Positions 1,927 through 26,135 of a stretch of DNA of 29,409 nucleotides are shown here, in pieces. Every line of letters begins with the position of its first letter. Position 1 is the first letter of the stretch. A model generated the notes under the pieces. It saw nothing but the letters and a program-made list of their open reading frames with translations. It ran no database searches and had not been told where the DNA came from. Source of the stretch: a virus; IMG/VR virus record IMGVR_UViG_3300009785_000059, positions 1 through 29,409 of that record. One strand, 5' to 3'. The position numbers and the translations under genes are program-made.

Positions 1927-3786
1927 TTATAATGCCAATGCTATTGCTCGTAAGTCTTTTAATATTGGTGGTTGAGCTGCATTAGTTCCTTTCATCACAA
2001 TTTTAATTGCAAATTGAGCAAATTCTGGAAGTGGTGTTCCTATACCATCATCAGTAACACCAGCAGTATAAACATATTGTTGAAAGTCTGTAGTTGCTAA
2101 TGATTTTGCAACAGTATTATCTGGAGAACCATCTGTGTTAAAGTACACATAACCCAATTCATCAAAATCATCTGATGAATCAGAACGTAATGTCTTAAAT
2201 AAAACTTCTACTTCAGAAGTTCCTTGAATATTACCAGCAAAAAAAACTTTTAGTGCAGTAGCAGGATTTTCTAATGCAATCTTTTTAGTAATATAGATAG
2301 CTGCGTTATTATCACCATCTGGTTCAGTTGATGCATTATAATTTAAGTATACATCATCAGAACTGTTAATACTATTCAGATTGTTGCCAACTAAAATCAT
2401 TGACATTAATTGAGTATCAATTACTGGTGATATATTTCGATTAAGAGTTGATAAAGTAATAGGCATGATTAATGATTTTGCGCCAGCTAATTCATTGGTT
2501 TCATTAATTTTAGAACAAACAATTCTTGTGGTATCTAAATTATTATTTTCATTTAAATCAAATAAAGTTGAAATTGTGTCTGTTGTAAAAGAAGCTTCAG
2601 TACCACTAGGACTTGTTCCACTTGTAGTTCTAATTCTAGGTATTATTTTAGTATTTGGAAATTCTTTTGCTGCAATTTGAGTTTTAAATGTTTCAAATCT
2701 ATAATTTTCTGTGGCATATACATTTGTTCCACCACTATCGATTACTGTAGACGTACCTGTAATAGTAGGAGCGGTTGTAAGTAGTATAGTATAACTATCT
2801 ACTTCTATATTTGCAATTAAAATATGTGTTTTGTTTATTTCTGTAAGAGGTGTATTATTCAACTGATATAATTCAATAGTTGTGCCACTAGAATGTGATG
2901 CTGAAATTGTATTATCAAATCCTCTAAAATTTGAAGTAAACGTAGAACCTGATAATGTACCTCTAATAATCTCATTACCAATCTTAATAAACATTTGGTC
3001 TATTCCATTTATTGCCAAATTACTAGCAACAAAACCAGTTGGACTTGTTAATACTATATTAGTAGCATCAATTCCACCACCAATTCCAGCTGACAATGTG
3101 GTTGTTATTCCAGAAACTACACCATTAATGGTTACATTATTAGAAGTAGAATACATACCATGTGTTCTGTGATATACTCTCATAATTGTTGAACCATCTG
3201 TAAGTCTAATAGGATTTGTTAAAAGTCTTTTGCCAAATACAGAAGTTATTCCATCTTTTTCTACTGAATGGTTATAACCAGTATCCCTATTAAGCAATGT
3301 TACATTTCCAACATTAGTACTAAAATTGCATTTATATAATGTGAATTTTAAATCTTGTGATTGTACTGGAAGCCAAGCTGAAGAATTTTGTGATTTATAT
3401 AACACTCCATTAGAAGGATTAGATGAGACTACTCTATTTGCATCGCCAACATCAACCCAACCTAATTCTGAAATCCATATTCTATAATCCAAACTTTGTG
3501 TTCCGACAACAATACAATATTCTATTCCTTGTAGTACATAAACTGGAGAGTCAAAAACAAATGTGGTTGGTACTGCGGCTGTTGTTGGATCTATATTGAT
3601 ATTTTCTGGTTCTAAGACTTTTCTACCAAAAGGTAAAATATTTTTGCCTGGGATTCCATTCCTAACATCTCTTATTTCTACATATGCTGGTATGTTTATA
3701 TCTTTTTCTGCAAAAAATAAATCTATTTGAGGAATAAACACCCCACCCTCATCACTTATTGTAAATGTTTGCGAAAGTGGGTTCAT
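1927..3786 (-). CDS. Baseplate/tail-fibre structural protein, resembles the C-terminal half of DUF4815 proteins
   Basis: This is a 619-residue beta-rich protein. The ATG is preceded by a good ribosome site (AGGAG, eight bases upstream). The N-terminal block NPLSQTFTISDEGGVFIPQI, followed by DLFFAEKDINIPAYVEIRDV, is a sandwich-like segment. As I recall it, in marine myoviruses this segment is found in the C-terminal part of long DUF4815-type proteins, usually as DPLAQTF. A second recognisable block is MRVYHRTHGMYSTSNNVTIN (about residues 203-222). The rest is Thr/Ser/Asn-rich with no catalytic motif. Here the block is a separate gene, divided from the 1617-residue DUF4815 protein by a Hint-domain gene. 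The most economical reading is that it sits with that protein at the baseplate periphery. A tail-fibre adaptor role like T4 gp9/gp10 is possible but not shown. Confidence 0.7.
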   Translation of the reverse strand: MNPLSQTFTISDEGGVFIPQIDLFFAEKDINIPAYVEIRDVRNGIPGKNILPFGRKVLEPENINIDPTTAAVPTTFVFDSPVYVLQGIEYCIVVGTQSLDYRIWISELGWVDVGDANRVVSSNPSNGVLYKSQNSSAWLPVQSQDLKFTLYKCNFSTNVGNVTLLNRDTGYNHSVEKDGITSVFGKRLLTNPIRLTDGSTIMRVYHRTHGMYSTSNNVTINGVVSGITTTLSAGIGGGIDATNIVLTSPTGFVASNLAINGIDQMFIKIGNEIIRGTLSGSTFTSNFRGFDNTISASHSSGTTIELYQLNNTPLTEINKTHILIANIEVDSYTILLTTAPTITGTSTVIDSGGTNVYATENYRFETFKTQIAAKEFPNTKIIPRIRTTSGTSPSGTEASFTTDTISTLFDLNENNNLDTTRIVCSKINETNELAGAKSLIMPITLSTLNRNISPVIDTQLMSMILVGNNLNSINSSDDVYLNYNASTEPDGDNNAAIYITKKIALENPATALKVFFAGNIQGTSEVEVLFKTLRSDSSDDFDELGYVYFNTDGSPDNTVAKSLATTDFQQYVYTAGVTDDGIGTPLPEFAQFAIKIVMKGTNAAQPPILKDLRAIALAL

Positions 3787-3788
3787 TA

Positions 3789-3839
3789 TAACTCTCCTAC
3801 TTTATATTCTATTCCTTGTCTTGATAAATCATTTGACAT
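3789..3839 (-). CDS. Possible 16-17-residue coupling peptide between Hint gene and next gene
   Basis: An ATG two codons after the Hint-gene stop and in the same frame opens a short frame reading MSNDLSRQGIEYKVGEL. Its TAA overlaps the ATG of the 619-codon gene (TAATG), and its last codons contain the AGGAG ribosome site of that gene. The sequence looks like a real protein end rather than random AT-rich DNA. It may be a remnant of a longer C-terminal part once joined to the Hint domain, or a small coupling peptide. Evidence is thin. Confidence 0.25.
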
Positions 3840-3842
3840 ACT

Positions 3843-4208
3843 TTAACTCGCCTTTTTTAATTTTAATTTATACTGCCCATGAACAGTATATGTATGATTA
3901 TTACAATGAACATCATATCTATCATCTTGTGTTACAATACTAACTGTTGGCACTAAAGAATTTATAAATTCTGTGGATGTTACTTCTATATTATTGATAT
4001 AATCACCTACTATTACATCTTCAGTTTTTCTCCATTCGCCGTTTACTAACAATGGATGATCATTTGTTATTTTTAGTTCATTATTAATAATATAATATCC
4101 ACTTCTCATATGTTTATGTTGTACTTCGGTTACATAAGTTGAACCTATCATATCACCAACTTTAACATTTGTAACAAAAGAAAGTACCCCATTAATAATA
4201 ACTTTCAT
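3843..4208 (-). CDS. Stand-alone Hint (hedgehog/intein) domain protein, apparently lacking Cys1
   Basis: Counting from the ATG seven bases after the upstream TGA, this is a 121-residue protein. It shows the hallmarks of the Hint fold. The first is a block-B-like motif KITNDHPLLV (residues 46-55, His51) followed by W59 and a VGD turn (67-69). The second is a block-F-like motif YDVHCNNHTYTVHG (98-111). An earlier VGD at 17-19 matches the end of block A. What is missing is the N-terminal Cys/Ser nucleophile of inteins and hedgehogs, and the C-terminal His-Asn pair, which is replaced by a Lys-rich tail. Self-splicing is therefore unlikely unless the domain is joined to other sequence. The frame is also open upstream to 4361, over the end of the 1617-codon gene, so upstream ATGs (for example M-E-I-M-M) or a +1 frameshift fusion are possible. 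Its function is unknown. Confidence 0.65.
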   Translation of the reverse strand: MKVIINGVLSFVTNVKVGDMIGSTYVTEVQHKHMRSGYYIINNELKITNDHPLLVNGEWRKTEDVIVGDYINNIEVTSTEFINSLVPTVSIVTQDDRYDVHCNNHTYTVHGQYKLKLKKAS

Positions 4209-4212
4209 ATCT

Positions 4213-7200
4213 TCAAGAATCATCATTATCTCCATCATCATCAGTATCATCACCAGTATCAGAACCTCCAGCATCATCACTATCTCCATCATTACCAGAC
4301 TGCCCAGTTCCAGTTCCACCTCCAACATCAGATGCTGCTTGATCATCAGAAAATCCACCAACTCCTGTTACGCCTGAACTAGTAGGGCCATCATCACCAG
4401 AATATGTTGGTGCTACTTGTGCATATGCTATTATTTGATCGGTTTGTACACCTCCACCATAAACTACTGTAGATGATGAAACACTATCATAAACTACTTC
4501 TGCGTTTCTTGTAGATACTATAGTTATTTCCTCTGTATTAATAGTACCTACTGCTTCATAAAGTGTACTTCCTGCAGATGTAGCATCACTTCTTTGGCCA
4601 GCAACACCAGCACGTTGATTTATATCACTTGTAGTAAGTTTAAATTGAATTTTTCCAGTTGCAAATTTTGGTACATTTTTCTGGCCAGGAGCAGTATAGT
4701 CTGGAATTTCAAAATAACCTTCGATTTTACCAGCTCCAGATGCAATCAAAGGACTACCAGCAATTATAGTTTCATCTGAAGTGTATGCACTTGATAATGG
4801 CGTTGCATATCTATTCATATCTACTTCATTAAAGAAAACCCATAATCTTGCGTTAGGTAAGAATCCTTCACCAGTAAATTTAATACTTCCATCAACTCGT
4901 TCACTACCATCTGGTAGTGGCCCGACACCAGTTCTAGGTCGGCAATATGGTATATAACTATGATAAATTGTTTTATTTTGCACAGTTTCTATATCTGCTG
5001 CAACAATATTAAAAGAAGTACCTGTTCTTGATGAATCAGTTCTATTTTCGCTTGTTATTGTTCTTTTTATAGTATTACCAGATGCATCTACAAAAGTGTT
5101 TTCGGATAATACTTTGGTTGTATCAACGCCAGACCAAATTACTTCATATTCATTCCAATATGTTCCAGAAGTTAAACCATCCTTCTCTGCTAAAAGAGTA
5201 TCATAATTACCATCATTTACAAGAACATCTGGAGCAACAGCTGTTTCATACCAATTATCTCCAGCTGGAGATAAAGTTATACGACCTACCCATTGAGATA
5301 ATAGATAAGGTTGAAGATTTTCAACTCTAGTTGCATAGTCTTGTATAATCACAGGAACTATTTGATAAGGTAGCGTTATTAAATCACCAGTTTTTGTATA
5401 ACCAGCTGCAGATCTTTCTGCATTTGTAGTAACATTTTCAGCAAGTGATATATGTTTAAAGACAGCCATTGGTCTTAGTTCTTGTTTTAATTGATCTACT
5501 GCAATTCTATAATCCTTATTTAAAGCATCACCAACTTTATGTCCTGTAAAATTATCTACAACAAAACCAGACTTAAAACGATTAAGTCCATTTTGATCTT
5601 GTATTTCAAAAGATTCTGCTGATCTTTCTAATAAAGAAAGTGCTGTAAGATTTTCAACAGTCTCAATTCTATCATGCAGTTTTCCTATATCCCTCATAGT
5701 AAATCTTTGAGTTTTATATCTTGTAATATTTACATCTTTTGGAGAAAAAGTATATGCTGGTAAGAAAAATGTTGCAAGTTTAAGTGAAGCATCTAAATCT
5801 TTTGGTTGTTGTGGAACTTCAGATGAAGTTCCACTAATAAATTTAAAAGAACCAGTTTCGGTTAAATATAAATTTGTAAATCTAGGAAGATAAAATTCAA
5901 AGTCAGCTTGAATGCTACTTGCTGGTTTAGGGGTGTCAACAGTTGATCCTCCAGTTCCAGAAAATTCTCTTGAATTAAAATCAAATGAATTTCCTGTTAT
6001 TATATCTATAGATGTTACAGTAGCAGTTGTACCAATAGTATCTTTTACTTTTGGTCTGAAATCAAAACAATCTCTTAACTCAAATTCTCCTGTTGGTTGT
6101 GGTTCATCTGGATCAACTTTTGTAGCAGTATAATTTGGAACATTATCATATTCCATTTGTCCAGCACTAGCTGTATATGAGTCTACTGTAAATGCATCAC
6201 CAGTACCATGAGAAAAATAATCATAGACTATAAGAAGTCTACCACGAGGAACAGGGGCACTTTTTTTTCTTACAATTCTTGCAATATCATAAAAGTTGTC
6301 TCTCTGCCCAGTATCTAGTACAAAATTACTGGTTACAACTTTAGACCCTGCTGTGAGTGTTCCTACAGTCGCCGTTGCACCACTAAATGTACCAGTTATT
6401 TTTTCGCCAGAAATAAAATCTGTTGAACCAATTCCATCTCTTAGAATATATTGTATAGGAGAAACAGTTGAAAGAATTCTTGCAATTGCGCCAGTAGATG
6501 CACCAGTTATTTTCTCTCCTCTAACGAAAGTTCCAATAGAATTACTTGTAGTAAATTGAGGTATAACAGCTGATGTGGCATCATCAACTTCTGTGTCAAA
6601 TACGGCTAACACTTTATATACATCTCCACGACCCAAAGAAATATCTACGTCTGTTGATCTTGTTCCATATGCACCATCAGAATTAGATGATAAAACTTCA
6701 AGTTTTTTACAAAGATTTGTTGTCTTTGATTTTGAAGTAACAGATGTTCTTAATACTGTTGCATAAAGTTTTACTGTTGCTGCAGACCCTAATAAAGTAT
6801 TATCTGTAATTGTTAAAGCTCCAGTTCCAGTTCCACCAACTTTGGAGGCATCTAATGATATTAATTCTCCAGCTGAAGCATTACCGCCACCAGCATCAAT
6901 AACACTCATTTGGTAATCAATTGTTGAAAATCCAACAAAAGTTTCATTTGTTCCAGCAGAAAATGTAACCACTCCAGATGCGTTTGATGCTCCTATAAAA
7001 TTTCGTCTTATCGTATATTGTGTGTCGGTTACACCAGAATTTATTGCTGTTTTTAATGTTTTAATTGTATTTTTAGGTAATTTAAATATTGCAATATTTT
7101 TTTCTGGACTTTTAAGTTTAGCTACTATAGGAGTTTCTAATTCCATAGAATTTTTTACACCACTAGATGTATCAGTTTCAGTTTCTAATAAAACTCTGTT

Positions 7201-9066
7201 TTCAGCTGATTCATTATCAGAAAGAGTAGCATCATCAATTGAGAAAAGTCCAGCAGTTTCACTACCATCTAATACAATATCAGCAGTAAAATTTTGATCA
7301 TTAGAACTTCCAGACATATATAATGAACGAAAATCTTTAAATGCAAATGTTTTAATAGTTCCAGTTCCAGTTGCAGCAGTTCCATCTATAAGGATATCAG
7401 TTGAACCATCTCCACCAGCAATTTCAATTAATTTTCCAGTTAAATTAGAGTCAGATGCAATAAGTTTTTCACCAATTCTAAATCTACCAATTACAGTTGT
7501 TAGAACTAATTGTGTTCCGAATGTTAAATCTCCCCACACAAATCCAGTCGCACCAGAATCATTTCCAGTTATTTTTACTCCGTTGGCATGACTTGCAGTT
7601 AAAGTTGGAAATGGATCTCCATTTAAACTTATATATGTAAATGGCCTAATATCAAAAAGATAAAGTCTTGATACTGCACTTGCGTCACCATGAACCCCAT
7701 TTAAATGTTCAATTGAACGAGCTCTTGCAACACCAATTTGTGTTCCATTTGGTAGTCCTCTTGTATTGTTTTCTGAATCATATAATCCTACTGTTTTGTA
7801 TGGAATTGTCTCACCAATTATATTACCAATATCTGGTAAACCAAATTGATTAGTAATATTTACAAAATTGCCTATTTCAAAAGTTGAAATACCAGCATTA
7901 ATAGAATTAAAATCTCTAGATTTAGATAGATCTAAAGATGTAGGTGCAATTTTGGCAACTTCATAACCTTTAACATATGCTTTTCCTGTTGATATTTGAA
8001 CAGAAAGTAAAGATTCGTTTGCTTCAGAGTTTTGAGATGTTGTTGCTCCAGAACCATAAACACCTTTATTTGTTTTACCTTTATAATCATTGTCTACTGA
8101 TTCACGAATTTCAAATTGAAAAGGTGTTACAGTATAATCTCCAGATTCATCATATGTTCTTCGTGCAAGAGCATCACCAATAATATTATAGTCACTACTC
8201 CTTGACATCATTTCTACAACGCCATTATTAATTCTCATAATTTCAACAAAATTTGAATCAATAATTGAGTTATATGGTCTACTAACCATTTTGATAGATA
8301 TTTTTAATCTATGAGCACCTTTAGCTGCATAGTTGTTTGAACCAGTTGCATTATCAGTCAGAGTTGCATCTTCTTCTGGTGTTACTAAAGTTTCTTGAAT
8401 TAAAAAACCAATACGCTTTGACTCGGTATTACTATTAGCACTCAATACTAGAGTTGATTCTTGACATCTTACAAATTGTCCACGAATAAAATAAACACCT
8501 TCTTCCAGTAGAACAGCAGAACCCCTTCTACTATTAAATCCTTTATCTGAAATTTGACAACATGCAACTCCAACACTATAACTTGTGGTATGTGTAATAA
8601 TTGTACTAGCAGTTATATTTTCATTTTTTAAAAATGTTTTTCGTTTGTTGTCTGTACCCACACCAATAAACTGAACATAAAGATTTGGATATCCTTGTTT
8701 ATCTTGAAAAGCTGGCTTGGAATTTATAACTTTTGCCTTGACACCAGAAGTAGAACCAGTTAATATAACTGGTGTTGTTTTGTTTACGAATTGTTCCAGA
8801 TTGACATTTTCTCCATTGAATGTTGGTGCAAGTCGTACAGCCCAATAACTATCGGTATAAGACATCTGGCCAGGAATAACAACACTTCCTTCTTTAAACA
8901 TGTGTTTACCATGAATTGAAATCTGGTCTTGAAGAATAGATTGGAGAGTTGTTAATTCTCTTGCCTGAACTGCGAAGCCCGGCCGAAATAAAACTCTATT
9001 GAAATTGTCTTTTATATCAAAATCGTCATAGTAAGGTGATACGTTTAGATTTGTAAGCTGTGCCAT
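4213..9066 (-). CDS. DUF4815-type large baseplate/tail structural protein
   Basis: This is a 1617-residue protein. The N-terminus (SPYYDDFD then NRVLFRPGFAVQARELTTLQ, residues 24-43) is the signature I associate with the DUF4815 family of marine myovirus virion proteins. The first ~350 residues, including AVLLEEGVYFIRGQFVRCQE, belong to that domain. The centre holds several 'GExITGxxSGAxA' modules (for example GEKITGASTGAIARI), which are also present in the gp7-position protein and gp8. A helical stretch with GKLHDRIETVENLTALSLLE follows, then a conserved beta block with FTGEGFLPNARLWVFFNEVD. The last ~80 residues are an Asp/Gly/Ser-rich low-complexity tail that ends at a TGA five bases before the Hint-domain ATG. 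The gene lies directly behind gp8, where T4 has gp9/gp10, so it is probably a baseplate-rim or fibre-attachment protein. No enzymatic motif is visible. Confidence 0.8.
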   Translation of the reverse strand: MAQLTNLNVSPYYDDFDIKDNFNRVLFRPGFAVQARELTTLQSILQDQISIHGKHMFKEGSVVIPGQMSYTDSYWAVRLAPTFNGENVNLEQFVNKTTPVILTGSTSGVKAKVINSKPAFQDKQGYPNLYVQFIGVGTDNKRKTFLKNENITASTIITHTTSYSVGVACCQISDKGFNSRRGSAVLLEEGVYFIRGQFVRCQESTLVLSANSNTESKRIGFLIQETLVTPEEDATLTDNATGSNNYAAKGAHRLKISIKMVSRPYNSIIDSNFVEIMRINNGVVEMMSRSSDYNIIGDALARRTYDESGDYTVTPFQFEIRESVDNDYKGKTNKGVYGSGATTSQNSEANESLLSVQISTGKAYVKGYEVAKIAPTSLDLSKSRDFNSINAGISTFEIGNFVNITNQFGLPDIGNIIGETIPYKTVGLYDSENNTRGLPNGTQIGVARARSIEHLNGVHGDASAVSRLYLFDIRPFTYISLNGDPFPTLTASHANGVKITGNDSGATGFVWGDLTFGTQLVLTTVIGRFRIGEKLIASDSNLTGKLIEIAGGDGSTDILIDGTAATGTGTIKTFAFKDFRSLYMSGSSNDQNFTADIVLDGSETAGLFSIDDATLSDNESAENRVLLETETDTSSGVKNSMELETPIVAKLKSPEKNIAIFKLPKNTIKTLKTAINSGVTDTQYTIRRNFIGASNASGVVTFSAGTNETFVGFSTIDYQMSVIDAGGGNASAGELISLDASKVGGTGTGALTITDNTLLGSAATVKLYATVLRTSVTSKSKTTNLCKKLEVLSSNSDGAYGTRSTDVDISLGRGDVYKVLAVFDTEVDDATSAVIPQFTTSNSIGTFVRGEKITGASTGAIARILSTVSPIQYILRDGIGSTDFISGEKITGTFSGATATVGTLTAGSKVVTSNFVLDTGQRDNFYDIARIVRKKSAPVPRGRLLIVYDYFSHGTGDAFTVDSYTASAGQMEYDNVPNYTATKVDPDEPQPTGEFELRDCFDFRPKVKDTIGTTATVTSIDIITGNSFDFNSREFSGTGGSTVDTPKPASSIQADFEFYLPRFTNLYLTETGSFKFISGTSSEVPQQPKDLDASLKLATFFLPAYTFSPKDVNITRYKTQRFTMRDIGKLHDRIETVENLTALSLLERSAESFEIQDQNGLNRFKSGFVVDNFTGHKVGDALNKDYRIAVDQLKQELRPMAVFKHISLAENVTTNAERSAAGYTKTGDLITLPYQIVPVIIQDYATRVENLQPYLLSQWVGRITLSPAGDNWYETAVAPDVLVNDGNYDTLLAEKDGLTSGTYWNEYEVIWSGVDTTKVLSENTFVDASGNTIKRTITSENRTDSSRTGTSFNIVAADIETVQNKTIYHSYIPYCRPRTGVGPLPDGSERVDGSIKFTGEGFLPNARLWVFFNEVDMNRYATPLSSAYTSDETIIAGSPLIASGAGKIEGYFEIPDYTAPGQKNVPKFATGKIQFKLTTSDINQRAGVAGQRSDATSAGSTLYEAVGTINTEEITIVSTRNAEVVYDSVSSSTVVYGGGVQTDQIIAYAQVAPTYSGDDGPTSSGVTGVGGFSDDQAASDVGGGTGTGQSGNDGDSDDAGGSDTGDDTDDDGDNDDS

Positions 9067-17342: not shown

Positions 17343-19340
17343 TTAATATCCAGAACTTGATGATGAAGAACTTGATGAAGAACTTGATGAAGAACTTGAT
17401 GATGCTGTTGATACTGTAGTTGTAGGATTAGATGATGGGTTCGTTACTGTTGTTGTAGTTATTCCAGTATTAGTTGTTGTGGTAGAATAACCAACTCCAG
17501 TTGAAGTCGTTAAATCACCATTTGCCCGTATAGTTGTATTTAATATATCAATTTCAAGAATTTGATTTCTTACTGGACTTATATCATAAGAGTTTGGTAT
17601 TGCCATTATACGAATTCGTCTTGAGAATTTATTATTAACACCAGCTACTCCAGTTATAATAATTTTATTAATATTAATCAAACCATTTATATAATCAACT
17701 ACACCAACTGTGTTATTAATATATGTTTTTGTATTAGAGGATATATAATAAAGTCTAAGATTACCAAAACCATCATCATCAAAAAAATATTCAATGGTTG
17801 TTACATTATTTAAATAAAATCCAGTAGATGTAATAATACCACCAGCAGATGCATTGTGTCCAGAATGTGGATTATAAAATGTATTATTAAAATTTATTTT
17901 ATAATCCGTTAAAGTTGATAATGAGGGTGTGATATATTTCGCCAATGTAACAGTTGCAACACTATTTAATATTGAATTATCTGTATTATCAATTAATCCC
18001 AATAATCTTGAGTGTCTAAATGGTGCATTAAATGTTTCTAAAAATGAATTAGAATATTTTGAAACTGTGTTATAAACTTTTGTTGATATTTCGTCATTAG
18101 TAGAATTTGTTATATTAGTATTAAATATTATATTAATATCAAGTATAAGACTTGTGATTTCTGCATCAACAATTACTGGAATTATAGATACAACCTTATA
18201 AGGAGTAAGTGCGGCTACTAAATTTGATTTTTGTAGAGAAGTTAAATTAACTCCAGTTGAAGATTTGATTGAAATAAAAACTTTACCATACTCTGGTGTC
18301 GAACTTACTCCAGTTGCCGGATCATAACTTCCATCTTCTCCACCCCAAACTGAAATAGCTTGTGTGTTCCTATATAATTTTCTTACAAACACTTCATAAT
18401 CTTTTGTTGTAACTGCACGACCTTGAGATGCATAATCAAGTGGAGCATTTAATTTTATTGACTGAATACTTTCTGCTTCAGCACCACCAACTGCAGCTGA
18501 CACAGTTGTAACAGTAATATTAGTAACACCATCTATTGAAGATGGTGAGGAAAAATTATTTGCTCCGTTTGATTCACCTTTATTTGTAACAACATATTCT
18601 AATTGAATTATGTTTCCATCAGAAACACTTTTACTTATAATTCCATCTCCAAAGTATACTTCAAATTTTCCAGCACTAATCTCTTGTATAAAATAAACAT
18701 TAGAATTTCGAGTTACTTGAGTTATGTCTGTTGCTTGTTGAAAAAATCTAGTTGTTGCATCTGTTGTGGAATTTTGAACTTTAACAGTAAGAGTAGATGT
18801 ATCTGCTCGTGGATCAGTAAGTATAAATTTCTGATCTATATCAGAAGTATCTACAATATATTTTGAAGTTATGTAAGTTCCCTCAAAAACAACAACATTA
18901 TTAAAAGTAATATTACCTCCACTATTAACAGAGGTAGTATCTCGTACAGTTACAAACCGATAATTTGTTCCGTCAATAGTTGTTGAAAAAGAAGTACCAG
19001 CTGGCATTGTTTTATAATTTGCATCTGTTGATAATATGACATTTATTAATGCTCTTGGAGCTCTTGGAGAACTAACGTCATATCCTAAAGTTTTTGCATG
19101 AGATACCACACTAGAACGCAAGCTCGCACTATCTAAGAACATTTCATTAGCAACCATGTTAGCATTAAAAGCAAGATAGTGTGTATTATAAGCAAGAGTA
19201 TCTAAAAGAATATTTAAACCAGAACCTTCAAAATCATAATCTTTAAATTGAGATTGTCCTTTAAAAAAAGTTTTTAAATTATTTTTAATATTATCAAAGT
19301 CAAGTTCTGTAACTCTAAGGTTTCTGTTGTTTACGGCCAT
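17343..19340 (-). CDS. 6: Baseplate wedge protein gp6
   Basis: The gp6 family (baseplate J-like) forms the inner iris ring of the T4 baseplate; this protein has 665 residues against 660 in T4. The N-terminus is diagnostic: LRVTELDFDNIKNNLKTFFK, then GSGLNILLDTLAYNTHYLAF and ANMVANEMFLDSASLRSSVV. A conserved central block is KDYEVFVRKLYRNTQAISVW. The C-terminus is unusual: after a Thr/Ser-rich stretch it ends in 17 consecutive serines and Gly-Tyr, encoded by a 12-base tandem repeat. The ATG shares its first base with the last base of the gp25 stop (TAATG). The stop is three bases before the start of the gp7-position gene, consistent with co-translation of wedge subunits that bind each other. 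Confidence 0.93.
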   Translation of the reverse strand: MAVNNRNLRVTELDFDNIKNNLKTFFKGQSQFKDYDFEGSGLNILLDTLAYNTHYLAFNANMVANEMFLDSASLRSSVVSHAKTLGYDVSSPRAPRALINVILSTDANYKTMPAGTSFSTTIDGTNYRFVTVRDTTSVNSGGNITFNNVVVFEGTYITSKYIVDTSDIDQKFILTDPRADTSTLTVKVQNSTTDATTRFFQQATDITQVTRNSNVYFIQEISAGKFEVYFGDGIISKSVSDGNIIQLEYVVTNKGESNGANNFSSPSSIDGVTNITVTTVSAAVGGAEAESIQSIKLNAPLDYASQGRAVTTKDYEVFVRKLYRNTQAISVWGGEDGSYDPATGVSSTPEYGKVFISIKSSTGVNLTSLQKSNLVAALTPYKVVSIIPVIVDAEITSLILDINIIFNTNITNSTNDEISTKVYNTVSKYSNSFLETFNAPFRHSRLLGLIDNTDNSILNSVATVTLAKYITPSLSTLTDYKINFNNTFYNPHSGHNASAGGIITSTGFYLNNVTTIEYFFDDDGFGNLRLYYISSNTKTYINNTVGVVDYINGLININKIIITGVAGVNNKFSRRIRIMAIPNSYDISPVRNQILEIDILNTTIRANGDLTTSTGVGYSTTTTNTGITTTTVTNPSSNPTTTVSTASSSSSSSSSSSSSSSSSGY
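17352..17402 (-). repeat. 12-base tandem repeat encoding the poly-serine end of gp6
   Basis: On the plus strand the unit agaacttgatga is repeated four times, the first copy carrying an extra tga triplet. On the coding strand it gives 17 serine codons in the order AGT-TCT-TCA-TCA. The period is a multiple of three, so copy-number slippage changes only the length of the serine tract. Confidence 0.9.
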
Positions 19341-20563
19341 TATCGTAATCTCTCTAAAAATAAGGTTAGTTCAACTAACTCTGTTGGTGTATTTACAACA
19401 TAAAATTCTATACTAACTTCATATGCGTTTTTGTCTAAGTCTGGTGTAGTACGAACACCAACGAGTCGCACTCTTGGTTCAAAGTTAATAATCACATCTT
19501 CTATTTGTTTAGAAAGAATGACTGCTGTTACTGGAGTCATTAATTCAAATAACATACCTCTAACACCAGATGAAATTTCTGGATGAAAAGGTTTCTCGTA
19601 AGTATTTAGTAGGACAAGATTACGAACAGAACGCTTAACAGATTCTATATCTGTTAATATATTTACATCAGAACTATGAATTTTCTTAGTAAAGAATAAA
19701 TCTAAGTCTGTATATTTTCTACTGCTCCTACCATTATTGTTGTTTGATTGAGCATCAAAGTTTTGTGGGTTAGGTGATACTGCAGCTGTAGCATCTGATA
19801 AAGTAACTGTCTTAGTTGTTTGTTGTGCTGTTGATTGTTTTAATGCTTGTGTTGGTGTTAAAACAATTGCTAAAGGTGGCGGCGGTGCAAAACCAGATAA
19901 TCGGCGATTGAAAGCACTATCGCTAGTTTCACCATTTCCATCAGAATTTGTATCTGCACTATAAGGTGAAGTGGTTGAAGCACTTGAAGCACTGCTAGAC
20001 AATATATAGAATTCTCCATAACTATCGATATTGCCGGATCCACCACTATCGCTAGCTCCACTATCTCCATCTCCCCCTGCTGGCCCATCATCTCCATAAT
20101 TTGGAGTTATTGGAGATTCAGTATATGATCCTCCTTTGGTATAATAATCTTCTCCGCCAAAAAAACCACCATCTCCACCACTATCTCCTGGCCCATCATC
20201 ACTATCGCCTTCATTATAATATGGACTTACTGGGGTTTTAACATATGTGCTTCCACCAGAACCTGTGGTAAAGAAATTTTCATAACTTTCTCCACCATCA
20301 CTATCGCTAGCTCCACCATCTCCATCTCCATCTCCCCCTGCTGGCCCAGGATCAGCTGATGGAGAGCTTGGATCTACACCTGTAGATCCACTATATTGAA
20401 TAGCAATATAATTACTAGAAGATGCAATCACACTTTGGTTAGAACTGACAGATGTTTCTTGTTCTGTTGATTCTTGATCGGATTGGGAAGACTCGGAAAC
20501 ATCATTATACTCAGCTGAGCCGCCATCAGCTGATGGTACTGCATAACCTATTCCTGAACCCAT
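19340..20563 (-). CDS. 25: Baseplate wedge protein gp25 with long Asp/Gly/Ser-rich N-terminal extension
   Basis: gp25 is the small wedge core protein, homologous to TssE of type VI secretion, that nucleates sheath assembly; T4 gp25 has 132 residues. Here the family domain occupies only residues ~283-407: YTDLDLFFTKK, then VKRSVRNLVLLNTYEKPFHP, and the characteristic Glu-Pro-Arg (EPR) motif at 362-364 (INFEPRVRLVGV). The preceding ~280 residues are low complexity: an acidic Ser/Glu/Gln stretch, then three degenerate copies of a block GPAGGDGDxGASDSGG linked by Tyr-rich spacers (SPYYNEGD, TPNYGDDG), then a Pro/Thr/Gln linker. The start overlaps the stop of the acyltransferase gene (TAATG) with a ribosome site AAGGTGAT, which supports the extension being translated. 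The extension is probably disordered or surface-exposed. It resembles RTX Gly/Asp-rich sequence in composition but not in strict nonapeptide register. Confidence 0.88.
   Translation of the reverse strand: MGSGIGYAVPSADGGSAEYNDVSESSQSDQESTEQETSVSSNQSVIASSSNYIAIQYSGSTGVDPSSPSADPGPAGGDGDGDGGASDSDGGESYENFFTTGSGGSTYVKTPVSPYYNEGDSDDGPGDSGGDGGFFGGEDYYTKGGSYTESPITPNYGDDGPAGGDGDSGASDSGGSGNIDSYGEFYILSSSASSASTTSPYSADTNSDGNGETSDSAFNRRLSGFAPPPPLAIVLTPTQALKQSTAQQTTKTVTLSDATAAVSPNPQNFDAQSNNNNGRSSRKYTDLDLFFTKKIHSSDVNILTDIESVKRSVRNLVLLNTYEKPFHPEISSGVRGMLFELMTPVTAVILSKQIEDVIINFEPRVRLVGVRTTPDLDKNAYEVSIEFYVVNTPTELVELTLFLERLR
20041..20348 (-). repeat. Imperfect direct repeats in the gp25 N-terminal extension
   Basis: The segment at 20041-20087 recurs at 20293-20348 with long identical cores (actatcgctagctccac, and a 24-base core ending ctgctggccca). 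A more diverged third copy lies around 20181-20230. They encode the GPAGGDGD-type blocks, and an extra ccatct triplet pair separates the two best copies, pointing to duplication and slippage. Confidence 0.75.
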
Positions 20564-22915: not shown

Positions 22916-25621
22916 CTATATACCAAAAAGATCAACACGAGGCTCTGCATATGCAGAGTTTTGTTGCTGACGAATTGCAATTAACACATTTCTACCATCT
23001 ATTGCAAGATTACTGCCAAACTTTTCTAATCTACCACTTCCAATTGAAGTTCTATTTTCTATATTTTCAACTAGTTCTCCAGTAGTTGCATCATAAACAT
23101 ATACAATACCTTTATTATATACAGTACGAGGTTCTTTTGATCTAGAAAGTAATTCTTCTTCTGTATCATATATTCCAACAATAGACGCTCTAAAATCAAT
23201 ACCATATTCATCAGGAGCGCTAACGATAATATATTTACCAGATATTGCAACTTTAAATCCAAAGAGCGCATTACGACTATCGTTAGGATTTGTTAATGTA
23301 TGAAGTAGATTTCCAGTAATAGTGTCATAAACAAATACCTTACCAGAACCATTTCCGTAACGCCAGTCGGTTGAGTTCACGAGTGCCTGCCTAGAAGTCT
23401 TGTCAAAGACTTTCATTGCACGATAATCACCAACAACAAAATAATCATTTGAAATTGCTAATGCGTAACCATATTCACCATTTTCATGTTGTTCATCTTG
23501 GTTTATTGTATGCAATAGTTCGGTATCTGTCCAATCACCAGTTGTAGTTTTGTATATCTGTACATAATAACCTGTTTGTCTATTATTGCCCAGACTATTA
23601 TTTGGGTTTGGAATCCTTAATCTAGTAATAATATAATTACTAGACATTTCAGCGGATATGAATCCACCTAATACTGATTCTGGTGGAGTTATTGTATGTA
23701 CTAATGCTCCGCCTAGAGTAGAAAGTGAATCTGTAAATTGTTGATTTAAAATATAAGATAAATCTTCTGTAGTTTCTGCATAACCTAGAGTCGAAATTGT
23801 AACTGGTGGAACTGTCCAAGTTGTAGTGGCGCCACTGGCATTCTCACCTATAATGCCTATTTCAGCATTATCTGCATATTCCACTCCGTTTACAATAATA
23901 GTATTTCCTGTTTTATTAACTGCAACTGCTGTTGATGACGTTGTTGTTTGATTTTCAAATACACCTGATACATAAGTAGCAGCAGTATTTGTGCCTAGTG
24001 GTGTCGCATGTTGGTTTTGTAAAAGAAATATGCCAGTAAAAGTTATTGTTGTGCCAGGATTTGATGTAAATACACTAGAAGTGGTAAAATTTGTCACCAT
24101 AGTTGGTACACCACTTGTACTTACATTAGTGGCTCCAGCATTTACAAGATTTGTGTCTATAGCGTCATATAATCCACTATAAGGAAGAGGCACATCTGAT
24201 CGAGGAAGGTTTAAACCAATATTTGTACCAGATTGCGATAACTTAAATACAACAACAGGCTCGACATTGTTACCAGTCTGTGTAAGCCTAAAATTCGTTC
24301 CTGTCTGAACTGAACTTGTAACTGAATTAGATGTTACTGTAACTTCAATTCCATCTCCTGGCAATCCTGGCACTACATTAGAATAGATTCCTGCATAAAT
24401 TTGACTATCGCTACTATTTCGAGGTATAGAATTTGTAATTGTTATAATTTGGGATGGTTCTGTTATTAAAAATTTACCATCTTCACTAACAATTTTAAAA
24501 TTCTCTGTAGAAGCTTTCATAATATGTATTAAATCGCCTTGATAACTAGTGGCATTTAGTCCAAATCCGTTAGTAGTGGCAATAAAATAGTTACCAGATA
24601 TTGAAAGATTTTTTCCAAAATTTTTGCTAATAGTTGGGTTTGGATTTTGTATTGTGTGGACTAATTTTCCAGTAGTAACATTATAGGAATATACTCTACC
24701 GACATCTGCACCAGCAGAAGTCTCCATTCTATAAGCATAAGTTATCTTTACTGCTGTAAAGTCTTGACCCTTCTGATTAAATTGTGGAACAGAGGAGGCC
24801 CCGCCGGGCCAACTATTTACTGATGGGCTGAATAAAATTTTTAGGATTTCAAATCCACCCCAATAGGAATTGAAGTAGTCTTGTCTGTAATAATAGTCTT
24901 CTCCAAAATTAAGATCAAACCAATCACCACTTGCACCATTTCTACCTTGAACTGATTGAATTACGGCTGGTCTTTGAGATTGAATAACACCATCATCAGT
25001 AACATAGGATGTCAGGGGGAAGCCCACAACACGAACACCTTGCCCATTAATCATCCATTGTTGTTTTCTCATATTAGTTAAAGGGCCCCTGTATTCTTCG
25101 TATTCTTCTTCAGTATAATAAAATTTTAATGTAGTCAATCTTTCCATAACAAGATCATTACGATTATAATTGACAAACCAATTTGAATCTTCAAAACTCT
25201 CAGCAATTATACCTACTACTGATTCACCATATTGTGGAATGCCGTGTGGAGAAATATCTTCAGCTGGAGCTCCGACAATAGCATTATTGCCAAATATTCC
25301 AACTGATAAACCGAAATCATCTCTCATAGCAGGTGTTAAGATTGTCAACGCCTCTTCTTCAATGAGTCTGGGAGGTAGTCCACTTCTTGTATTTTCTACA
25401 TGCATAAAGAACGAGTTTCCATCAGCAAGATTATAATCGTTTGGATTTTGTATTGTGTGGACTAATTTTCCAGTAGTAACATTATAGATATATACAGTAT
25501 CAGGTATAATGCTATCATAATTAAGAACTCCAGCATTAGCACCAATAATAACATAGTTACCAGAAATTTTTATAGATGAAGGATATCCAGTTAATTTTTC
25601 GCTTGTTCTTGGGTGTGACAT
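22916..25621 (-). CDS. FG-GAP-like beta-propeller virion protein
   Basis: I place the start at the ATG at 25621, one base after the PAAR stop, giving 901 residues; the frame is open further upstream but there it only overlaps the PAAR gene. The protein is a series of blades with the pattern 'hydrophobic I-S-G-N-Y-hh-h-G-A ... V-Y-h-Y-x-x-T-T-G-x-L-h-H-T-I'. Clear examples are SIKISGNYVIIGANAG, FGNNAIVGAPAED, NLSISGNYFIATTN, ALAISNDYFVVGD, KVAISGKYIIVSAPDEYG and NLAIDGRNVLIAIR, with VYIYNVTTGKLVHTIQNPN between them. This is an integrin-like FG-GAP or kelch-like propeller of about six or seven blades. A ~300-residue region (about 380-680), starting near FKIVSEDGKFLITE, interrupts the blades and resembles inserts in the gp7-position protein. 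T4 has no counterpart. A carbohydrate-binding or adhesin role next to the spike tip is plausible but unproven. Confidence 0.8.
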   Translation of the reverse strand: MSHPRTSEKLTGYPSSIKISGNYVIIGANAGVLNYDSIIPDTVYIYNVTTGKLVHTIQNPNDYNLADGNSFFMHVENTRSGLPPRLIEEEALTILTPAMRDDFGLSVGIFGNNAIVGAPAEDISPHGIPQYGESVVGIIAESFEDSNWFVNYNRNDLVMERLTTLKFYYTEEEYEEYRGPLTNMRKQQWMINGQGVRVVGFPLTSYVTDDGVIQSQRPAVIQSVQGRNGASGDWFDLNFGEDYYYRQDYFNSYWGGFEILKILFSPSVNSWPGGASSVPQFNQKGQDFTAVKITYAYRMETSAGADVGRVYSYNVTTGKLVHTIQNPNPTISKNFGKNLSISGNYFIATTNGFGLNATSYQGDLIHIMKASTENFKIVSEDGKFLITEPSQIITITNSIPRNSSDSQIYAGIYSNVVPGLPGDGIEVTVTSNSVTSSVQTGTNFRLTQTGNNVEPVVVFKLSQSGTNIGLNLPRSDVPLPYSGLYDAIDTNLVNAGATNVSTSGVPTMVTNFTTSSVFTSNPGTTITFTGIFLLQNQHATPLGTNTAATYVSGVFENQTTTSSTAVAVNKTGNTIIVNGVEYADNAEIGIIGENASGATTTWTVPPVTISTLGYAETTEDLSYILNQQFTDSLSTLGGALVHTITPPESVLGGFISAEMSSNYIITRLRIPNPNNSLGNNRQTGYYVQIYKTTTGDWTDTELLHTINQDEQHENGEYGYALAISNDYFVVGDYRAMKVFDKTSRQALVNSTDWRYGNGSGKVFVYDTITGNLLHTLTNPNDSRNALFGFKVAISGKYIIVSAPDEYGIDFRASIVGIYDTEEELLSRSKEPRTVYNKGIVYVYDATTGELVENIENRTSIGSGRLEKFGSNLAIDGRNVLIAIRQQQNSAYAEPRVDLFGI
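24638..24686 (-). repeat. 49-base perfect direct repeat, copy 1
   Basis: This segment is identical base for base to 25439-25487 and encodes the blade segment YNVTTGKLVHTIQNPN of the beta-propeller gene. Flanking bases diverge at once on both sides. Confidence 0.93.
25439..25487 (-). repeat. 49-base perfect direct repeat, copy 2
   Basis: This is the second copy of the repeat at 24638-24686, about 800 bases away in the same gene and the same reading frame. Complete identity, including third codon positions, implies a recent duplication or gene conversion. Confidence 0.93.
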
Positions 25622-25622
25622 A

Positions 25623-26135
25623 TTAATACACCGACTGTGGTGTAGTTGATACACTTGATGTTGTGGTAGTTGTTGTTTCAGTAGAAGATGGTGTGGTAGT
25701 TGTTGATGTAGGTTTTTTAAAAGTATGACGTAACACAGCATTAACTCCAAGAACAGTATCAATATTTTGATCGATAAATCCAATTTCTACATTTACTTGA
25801 GTTGTCTCCTCGCCAGTTATTTCATCTATTACAACAAGATCACCCCATTCTATTACTTGAGAAACTCCAGAATCACCTACACTTATATCTGATGAACCGC
25901 TTGCAGCATGTCCACAAGTGGCTAAATCTCCAGCATTACAAACTGCAACACCTCCAATAAAAACTTTAAAAGAACCAGCAATCATAGTTGGTGCAGCATG
26001 AATTATTGGTGGTGCATGATTTGTAACTGAATCGCCATGAACTACTACTGCAGCTCCATTTGCAAATACTGTAGATTGTGATGCAATTAAAGCTCCTCCA
26101 GCAGAGTCTGTTCCATTTCTACATATACCTGCCAT
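25623..26135 (-). CDS. PAAR-domain spike-tip protein
   Basis: PAAR proteins cap the gp5/VgrG needle and form the sharp, usually metal-bound tip of contractile injection systems; T4 has gp5.4. Residues 1-95 of this 170-residue protein show the PAAR pattern: MAGICRNGTDSAGG, then FANGAAVVVHGDSVTNHAPP, and GGVAVCNAGDLATCGHAASG. His33, His40, His46, Cys66, Cys74 and His76 are possible metal ligands. After ~100 residues there is a C-terminal extension with a short beta segment and a Thr/Ser-rich tail (STETTTTTTSSVSTTPQSVY). Tip proteins with extensions often carry an effector or adaptor part, but this one is too short and simple for a recognisable enzyme. The gene starts eight bases after gp5 and its stop is one base before the propeller gene, as expected for a spike operon. 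Confidence 0.88.
   Translation of the reverse strand: MAGICRNGTDSAGGALIASQSTVFANGAAVVVHGDSVTNHAPPIIHAAPTMIAGSFKVFIGGVAVCNAGDLATCGHAASGSSDISVGDSGVSQVIEWGDLVVIDEITGEETTQVNVEIGFIDQNIDTVLGVNAVLRHTFKKPTSTTTTPSSTETTTTTTSSVSTTPQSVY

What the first reader, a model, noticed from the sequence alone, without database searches (positions are those of the whole stretch)
3843..4208. Free-standing Hint domain without the catalytic Cys, between two structural genes
Seen: block-B-like KITNDHPLLV with a downstream VGD, and block-F-like YDVHCNNHTYTVHG, in a 121-residue frame of its own. The first residue nucleophile and C-terminal His-Asn are absent. Known: Hint domains act in protein splicing or autoproteolysis. 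Inference: this is either a decayed intein/Hint element that separated into its own gene, or a repurposed Hint-fold structural protein. A Hint partner in tail maturation (cleaving or ligating neighbours) would be new.
Basis: partly seen in the sequence, partly recalled or inferred. Interest (0 to 1): 0.65.

Follow-up and report, generated by a model that had tools for sequence, protein, structure and literature searches.

The report
Detached, catalytically dead phage Hint domain
A small phage gene encodes a Hint fold (the self-cutting fold of inteins and Hedgehog proteins) that in its relatives forms the tail end of a giant virion protein with its catalytic cysteine intact; in this phage a frameshift has cut it loose as its own gene without that cysteine, so it can no longer do the usual self-cutting reaction.

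Summary
The minus-strand ORF at 3843-4208 encodes a genuine Hint fold: AlphaFold pLDDT 91, and Foldseek hits with E<=1e-3 that are all inteins, BIL domains or Hedgehog. A better start is ATG 4223 (126 aa, GGAG 6 nt upstream).

It does not lie between two unrelated genes. It lies between the two halves of one giant DUF4815 tail/baseplate protein, which is a single chain in Kyanoviridae and in this phage's closest relatives. In 41 of 41 full-length relatives the same Hint is fused in frame to the C-terminus of a structural-type protein (DUF4815 N-half, an HMO-2011-type protein, or a 2089-aa protein) with Cys1 present. All end without His-Asn or a C-extein. This is a one-sided, Hedgehog/Vint-like layout.

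In the window a frameshift at the Cys1 codon ends the upstream protein exactly where cleavage would occur and leaves Met in the Cys1 column. Apart from residues 1-2, all 31 other family-invariant positions survive, so the loss is recent or the fold is still used. The Hint was most likely acquired horizontally.

Best reading: a captured C-terminal autoprocessing module, inactivated and 'pre-cleaved' genetically. Active catalysis or ligation by this copy is unlikely.

The parts
3843..4223 (-). Free-standing Hint-fold ORF, best start ATG 4223 (126 aa); Met occupies the Cys1 column; block-B TxxH (TNDH) kept; no C-terminal His-Asn
4213..9066 (-). N-half of the giant DUF4815 tail/baseplate protein (1617 aa), ending in a Gly/Asp-rich linker ...DDGDNDDS at the position equivalent to the Hint cleavage site
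   Evidence: Pfam DUF4815 1.5e-59; PHROG 358 from its first position; linker composition
1927..3786 (-). C-half of the same protein (619 aa), restarting at MNPLSQTF, equivalent to D|PLAQ(S/T)F in single-chain homologues
   Evidence: PHROG 358 positions 1422-2055; alignment with Melnitz and S-RIM2
3786..3839 (-). Leader mini-ORF MSNDLSRQGIEYKVGEL*, resembling the N-terminus of the downstream gene in Hint-bearing relatives (MSVTSTGYRVGKQPIAQSF); its TAA overlaps the C-half ATG
   Evidence: homology judged by eye, suggestive only
4213..4226 (-). Frame break at the Cys1 codon (upstream stop TGA 4215-4213 overlapped by Hint-frame ATGs 4226 and 4223)
   Evidence: relatives read the Cys1 codon in frame with the upstream gene
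4230..4233 (-). GGAG ribosome-binding-like site 6 nt before ATG 4223

Best explanation
In related marine phages this Hint is the C-terminal self-processing domain of a structural-type protein. Cys1 is inferred to attack the preceding peptide bond (N-S acyl shift, helped by the block-B Thr/His), and the thioester is then hydrolysed or transferred, releasing the Hint and leaving the Gly/Asp linker as the new C-terminus. The window phage most likely acquired such a module at the linker between the two halves of its DUF4815 protein. A frameshift then removed Cys1 and separated the Hint into its own, probably translationally coupled, gene. The N-half is now made already ending at the would-be cleavage site, so cleavage is bypassed genetically. 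The free Hint is a folded, nucleophile-less by-product, recently inactivated or kept for a non-catalytic role. Shown by sequence and model: fold, Cys1+ fused relatives, frame break, absent Cys1/His-Asn/C-extein, conserved remainder. Inferred: chemistry in relatives, horizontal capture, coupled translation, lack of catalysis here.
For: Fold: pLDDT 91.1, pTM 0.82; the 19 PDB hits at E<=1e-3 are all inteins, BIL or Hedgehog. Relatives: 41/41 full-length copies have in-frame Cys1 and a stop shortly after YT(V/L)(H/K)G. Frame break at Cys1. Of 33 positions invariant in diverged relatives, the window differs only at C1->M and L2->I, both at the broken edge. The window lies with Hint-less single-chain L022/L024 by both halves (60-68% identity; trees; AU rejects grouping with L001-3 at p 8e-66 and 3e-48), while its Hint is up to 66% identical to the Hints of phages whose N-halves are only 26-30% identical. 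None of 78 surveyed C-half relatives carries this Hint family, and 69 are single chain. The module occurs on at least three unrelated host proteins, and the HMO-type copies nest within DUF4815-type copies.
Against: In the short Hint tree, grouping the window with L014 (a Hint-bearing member of the window's own side of the DUF4815 tree) is not rejected (AU p=0.38), so vertical descent with several losses is formally possible. Synonymous divergence is near saturation, so continued selection cannot be separated from a very recent break.
Confidence: 0.72

Rival explanations
1. The detached Hint is kept on purpose as a non-catalytic structural, chaperone or plug protein of the tail, binding the split between the two halves of the giant protein.
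For: All 31 non-edge invariant positions retained; dN against relatives like that among Cys1+ copies; good ribosome-binding-like site; phage NCTB has another small free-standing Hint gene without Cys1 directly after a tail gene with a C-terminal Hint.
Against: Retained TxxH and the whole catalytic fold are equally explained by very recent loss; no independent lineage with the same free-standing form of this family was found; closest relatives do without any Hint.
Confidence: 0.2
2. The frame break is a sequencing or assembly error and the real phage encodes an ordinary fused Cys1-bearing Hint.
For: Single-genome event in a virus record from an environmental collection; the break lies next to low-complexity GAT/GGA repeats.
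Against: Other large genes in the window are open over long lengths (665-2215 aa); a second apparent frame break with a new start and AGGAG site lies at the other edge of the module, which one error would not give.
Confidence: 0.1
3. The Hint is still joined to the upstream protein by programmed +1 frameshifting at TCT-TGA-A and acts with another nucleophile.
For: The Hint frame is +1 relative to the upstream gene and open across the stop.
Against: The shifted product would read ...DDS-EDMKV, two residues short, with Ser not in the Cys1 column; no relative uses frameshifting, all are in frame.
Confidence: 0.03
4. It is a half of a split intein that splices the two DUF4815 halves in trans.
For: It sits exactly between the two halves of a protein that is single-chain elsewhere.
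Against: No C-intein: in relatives only about 10-14 residues precede the PLAQ/PIAQ motif of the downstream gene (two in the window), with no His-Asn and no conserved Cys/Ser; the window copy has no Cys1 and no N-extein.
Confidence: 0.02

Closest known systems
Vint (Pfam PF14623; VWA-associated Hint of eukaryotes)
   Same: 17/17 members match at E<=0.1, best 1.9e-8; L017 exceeds the gathering score; motifs A and B present; C-terminal position in the host protein
   Different: The window copy itself is weak (E 0.03) and lacks Cys1; no VWA domain; structural match to 8r2c only moderate (TMq 0.57)
Hedgehog C-terminal autoprocessing (Hog) domain
   Same: Hint fold (1at0, TMq 0.69); relatives are one-sided C-terminal modules with Cys1 and no C-extein
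   Different: No evidence of a sterol or any acceptor; the window copy has no nucleophile
Bacterial intein-like (BIL) domains
   Same: Fold (2lwy, TMq 0.75); no +1 nucleophile
   Different: This family lacks the C-terminal His-Asn and any C-extein
Phage NCTB tail Hint proteins (SBV38305, SBV38304; annotated 'intein domain')
   Same: C-terminal Hint after a Gly-rich linker on a tail protein, followed by a small free-standing Hint without Cys1
   Different: Distant sequence (about 27% identity, not significant on its own); NCTB copies carry HN; its free-standing copy appears to have lost the block-B His, the window copy keeps it
Tandem Hints in L106/L155
   Same: Inserted at exactly the same DUF4815 junction (before DPLAQTF)
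   Different: Different Hint subfamily (Hom_end_hint, PT-HINT), in frame, both with Cys1 and HN, single 2451-aa chain

Membership tests
Hint superfamily | Hint (horseshoe beta) fold | tested here: met
   AlphaFold2 pLDDT 91, Foldseek top hits all Hint, probability 1.00
Hint superfamily | Block B TxxH | tested here: met
   TNDH at residues 53-56; H56 invariant, T53 nearly so
Intein (splicing) | Cys/Ser at position 1 | tested here: not met
   Met in window; Cys in all 41 full-length relatives
Intein (splicing) | C-terminal His-Asn and +1 nucleophile in a C-extein | tested here: not met
   Stop codon shortly after YTVHG in window and relatives
Hog-like one-sided autoprocessing domain | C-terminal position fused to an N-extein, Cys1, TxxH, no C-extein | tested here: not met
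   Met by the relatives (some HMO-type copies have S in place of T in TxxH); the window copy fails on fusion and on Cys1
Hog-like one-sided autoprocessing domain | N-S acyl shift and transfer to an acceptor | not testable with these tools
   Needs biochemistry
Vint (PF14623) | Score above the family gathering cut-off | tested here: not met
   Window 14.7 bits against 27; L017 30 bits, met
BIL domain | C-terminal HN without +1 nucleophile | tested here: not met
   No HN in window or in this Hint family

The most novel reading that the evidence does not exclude
Marine phages use a transferable Hedgehog-like C-terminal module on structural proteins to activate the protein's C-terminus as a thioester and attach it covalently to another molecule (another virion protein or a host component). 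In the window phage the module has become a separate gene that acts in trans or as a structural partner.
Probability: 0.08. Interest if true: 0.85.

Novelty: new variant of a known kind. Interest (0 to 1): 0.46.

Why it matters
It is a natural experiment. One Hint family is always fused with Cys1 on unrelated phage proteins and recurs at one fixed junction of a giant tail protein, and one copy has been detached with its nucleophile lost. If the Cys1+ relatives cleave, the window phage shows that cleavage can be replaced by gene fission; if they ligate, phages would have a Hedgehog-like conjugation system. Either answer can be tested with small recombinant proteins.

Tried and rejected
Trans-splicing split intein: rejected, no C-intein or conserved acceptor nucleophile in the downstream gene. 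Programmed frameshift: disfavoured (see rivals). Search of sequenced phages with P0001 gave only chance-level hits, mostly in enzyme genes with inteins. The Cys1 relative found phage NCTB at E=0.1, so that link rested at first on fold and gene context; the family HMM later matched the NCTB tail protein at 5.5e-13. The GTDB genome scan gave one hit, a phage-like contig in an Opitutia MAG (L057). Codon tests were uninformative because synonymous sites are near saturation. The Hint tree could not formally exclude common descent with L014. The phage papers read on Hint or inteins concern terminase, ribonucleotide reductase and a Staphylococcus phage gene, not C-terminal virion modules (PMC3556154, PMC5259590, PMC5526547, PMC3868846); the held library is partial, so this does not prove novelty. 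No PHROG family clearly covers this Hint.

Full report
OBSERVATION. Pfam gives only weak Intein_splicing (0.007) and Vint (0.028) matches. An AlphaFold2 model built on 17 aligned sequences has pLDDT 91.1 and pTM 0.82. All 19 PDB hits with E<=1e-3 are inteins, BIL domains or the Hedgehog autoprocessing domain. Of the alignment members, all 17 match Vint (best 1.9e-8) and 16 match Intein_splicing.

CONTEXT. The upstream gene (9066-4213) is a DUF4815 protein matching PHROG 358 from position 1. The downstream gene (3786-1927) matches positions 1422-2055 of the same family. In Melnitz EXVC044M (2127 aa) and S-RIM2 (2403 aa) these are one uninterrupted chain, with the window split falling at ...GW(W/Y)D|PLAQSF. 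The genes around include T4-like baseplate parts. PHROG calls family 358 'unknown function'; 'tail/baseplate' rests on neighbours and on 'structural protein' annotation in cyanophages.

RELATIVES. Viral scans gave 18 and then 40 loci, and the GTDB scan one more. Leaving out repeats and one truncated copy, there are 41 full-length relatives, not all independent. In all 41 the Hint is fused in frame to a larger protein and starts with Cys (C-L-L/T-E/N-D-M..., or C-I/V-S-P-D in L017/L018). All end without His-Asn. Hosts are the DUF4815 N-half (19 loci), a protein related to the HMO-2011 gene next to the portal gene (20 loci) and a 2089-aa protein (2 loci). In most copies the 50 residues before Cys1 are rich in G/D/E/S/N/T (0.52-0.76 in 32 of 34 measured copies against about 0.45 over the whole host protein; exceptions L014 0.20 and L017 0.46; window N-half tail 0.84). 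This is the one-sided layout of Hedgehog C-terminal domains, which use only the initial acyl shift (PMC7664689), and of Vint proteins (PMC2362128).

THE BREAK. In the window the upstream frame ends ...GAT GAT TCT TGA, while the Hint frame reads ATG ATG ATT CTT GAA GAT ATG AAA. Relatives read a Cys codon in frame at this place. Hence Met replaces Cys1 and Ile replaces Leu2, and the upstream protein stops at the would-be cleavage point. A GGAG lies 6 nt before ATG 4223, so I prefer that start; it also restores the 126-residue length of relatives. At the other edge, a 17-codon leader ORF (3839-3786) resembling the downstream N-terminus of relatives ends in TAATG, and the C-half restarts at MNPLSQTF after AGGAG. 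This second break suggests a module inserted out of frame at both edges, but the leader homology was judged by eye.

ORIGIN. By both halves the window groups with L022/L024 (60-68% identity), which are single-chain and Hint-less. By Hint it is closest to phages whose N-halves are only 26-30% identical. AU tests firmly reject the window grouping with L001-3 in both halves, but the short Hint tree does not reject window+L014 (p=0.38). Horizontal capture is therefore likely, not proven. Of 78 C-half relatives surveyed, 69 are single chain and none carries this Hint family; 8 were flagged as split, most of them interrupted away from the junction. The junction is nevertheless a recurrent site for Hint domains: L106/L155 carry two tandem, complete Hints of another subfamily in frame before DPLAQTF, and L158 has a Hint with HN near the C-terminal end of a DUF4815-like N-half.

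FUNCTION. Without an N-extein and without Cys1 the window copy cannot perform the canonical N-S acyl shift (inference from established Hint chemistry). Yet 31 of 31 non-edge invariant positions are intact, and dN is like that among Cys1+ copies. A simple Poisson bound says fewer than about 0.1 neutral amino-acid changes per codon have accumulated since any complete loss of constraint. Either the break is recent or the fold is still useful. I favour recent inactivation or bypass over structural co-option (about 0.2). Phage NCTB provides a parallel: a C-terminal Hint on a tail protein followed by a small free-standing Hint without Cys1.

NOVELTY. Hint-containing phage tail proteins have been annotated before (NCTB; many 'Hint' entries in BFVD). 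A detached, nucleophile-less copy whose relatives are uniformly fused and Cys1-bearing is a new variant of a known kind. The more interesting object is the Cys1+ family on phage structural proteins, whose chemistry is untested.

Noticed in passing
L155:5001-5651 and L106:1-651: Two tandem complete Hint domains (each with Cys1 and HN) sit in frame at the same DUF4815 junction (before DPLAQTF) in a 2451-aa single chain.
   Followed up: partly
L158:5001-5729: DUF4815-like N-half ending in a Hint with HN followed by a C-terminal stretch (GSDIRLKSDIR...) that looks, from memory, like an S74-type intramolecular chaperone; a different self-processing module at the same end.
   Followed up: no
L008, L034-L054: The same Hint family on the C-terminus of a protein related to the gene next to the portal in HMO-2011-like phages; HMO-2011 itself lacks it.
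   Followed up: partly
L059:5480-5941 (phage NCTB): Small free-standing Hint gene without Cys1 and apparently without the block-B His, directly after a tail gene with a C-terminal Hint.
   Followed up: partly
L160:5001-5963: Protein with an apparent array of three Hint domains in one 1093-aa frame.
   Followed up: no
window 3786-3839 (-): Leader mini-ORF overlapping the C-half start by TAATG, possible remnant of a donor N-terminus or a translational coupling device.
   Followed up: partly
window 22916-25783 (-): 955-aa frame with repeated GKLVHTIQNPN-like motifs and no PHROG match; its listed start lies inside the PAAR gene, so the real start is probably further in.
   Followed up: no
window 19340-20563 (-): Wedge-subunit-like protein with a long Gly/Asp/Ser-rich N-terminal extension (about 230 residues); the neighbouring wedge protein (17343-19340) ends in a poly-Ser run.
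   Followed up: no
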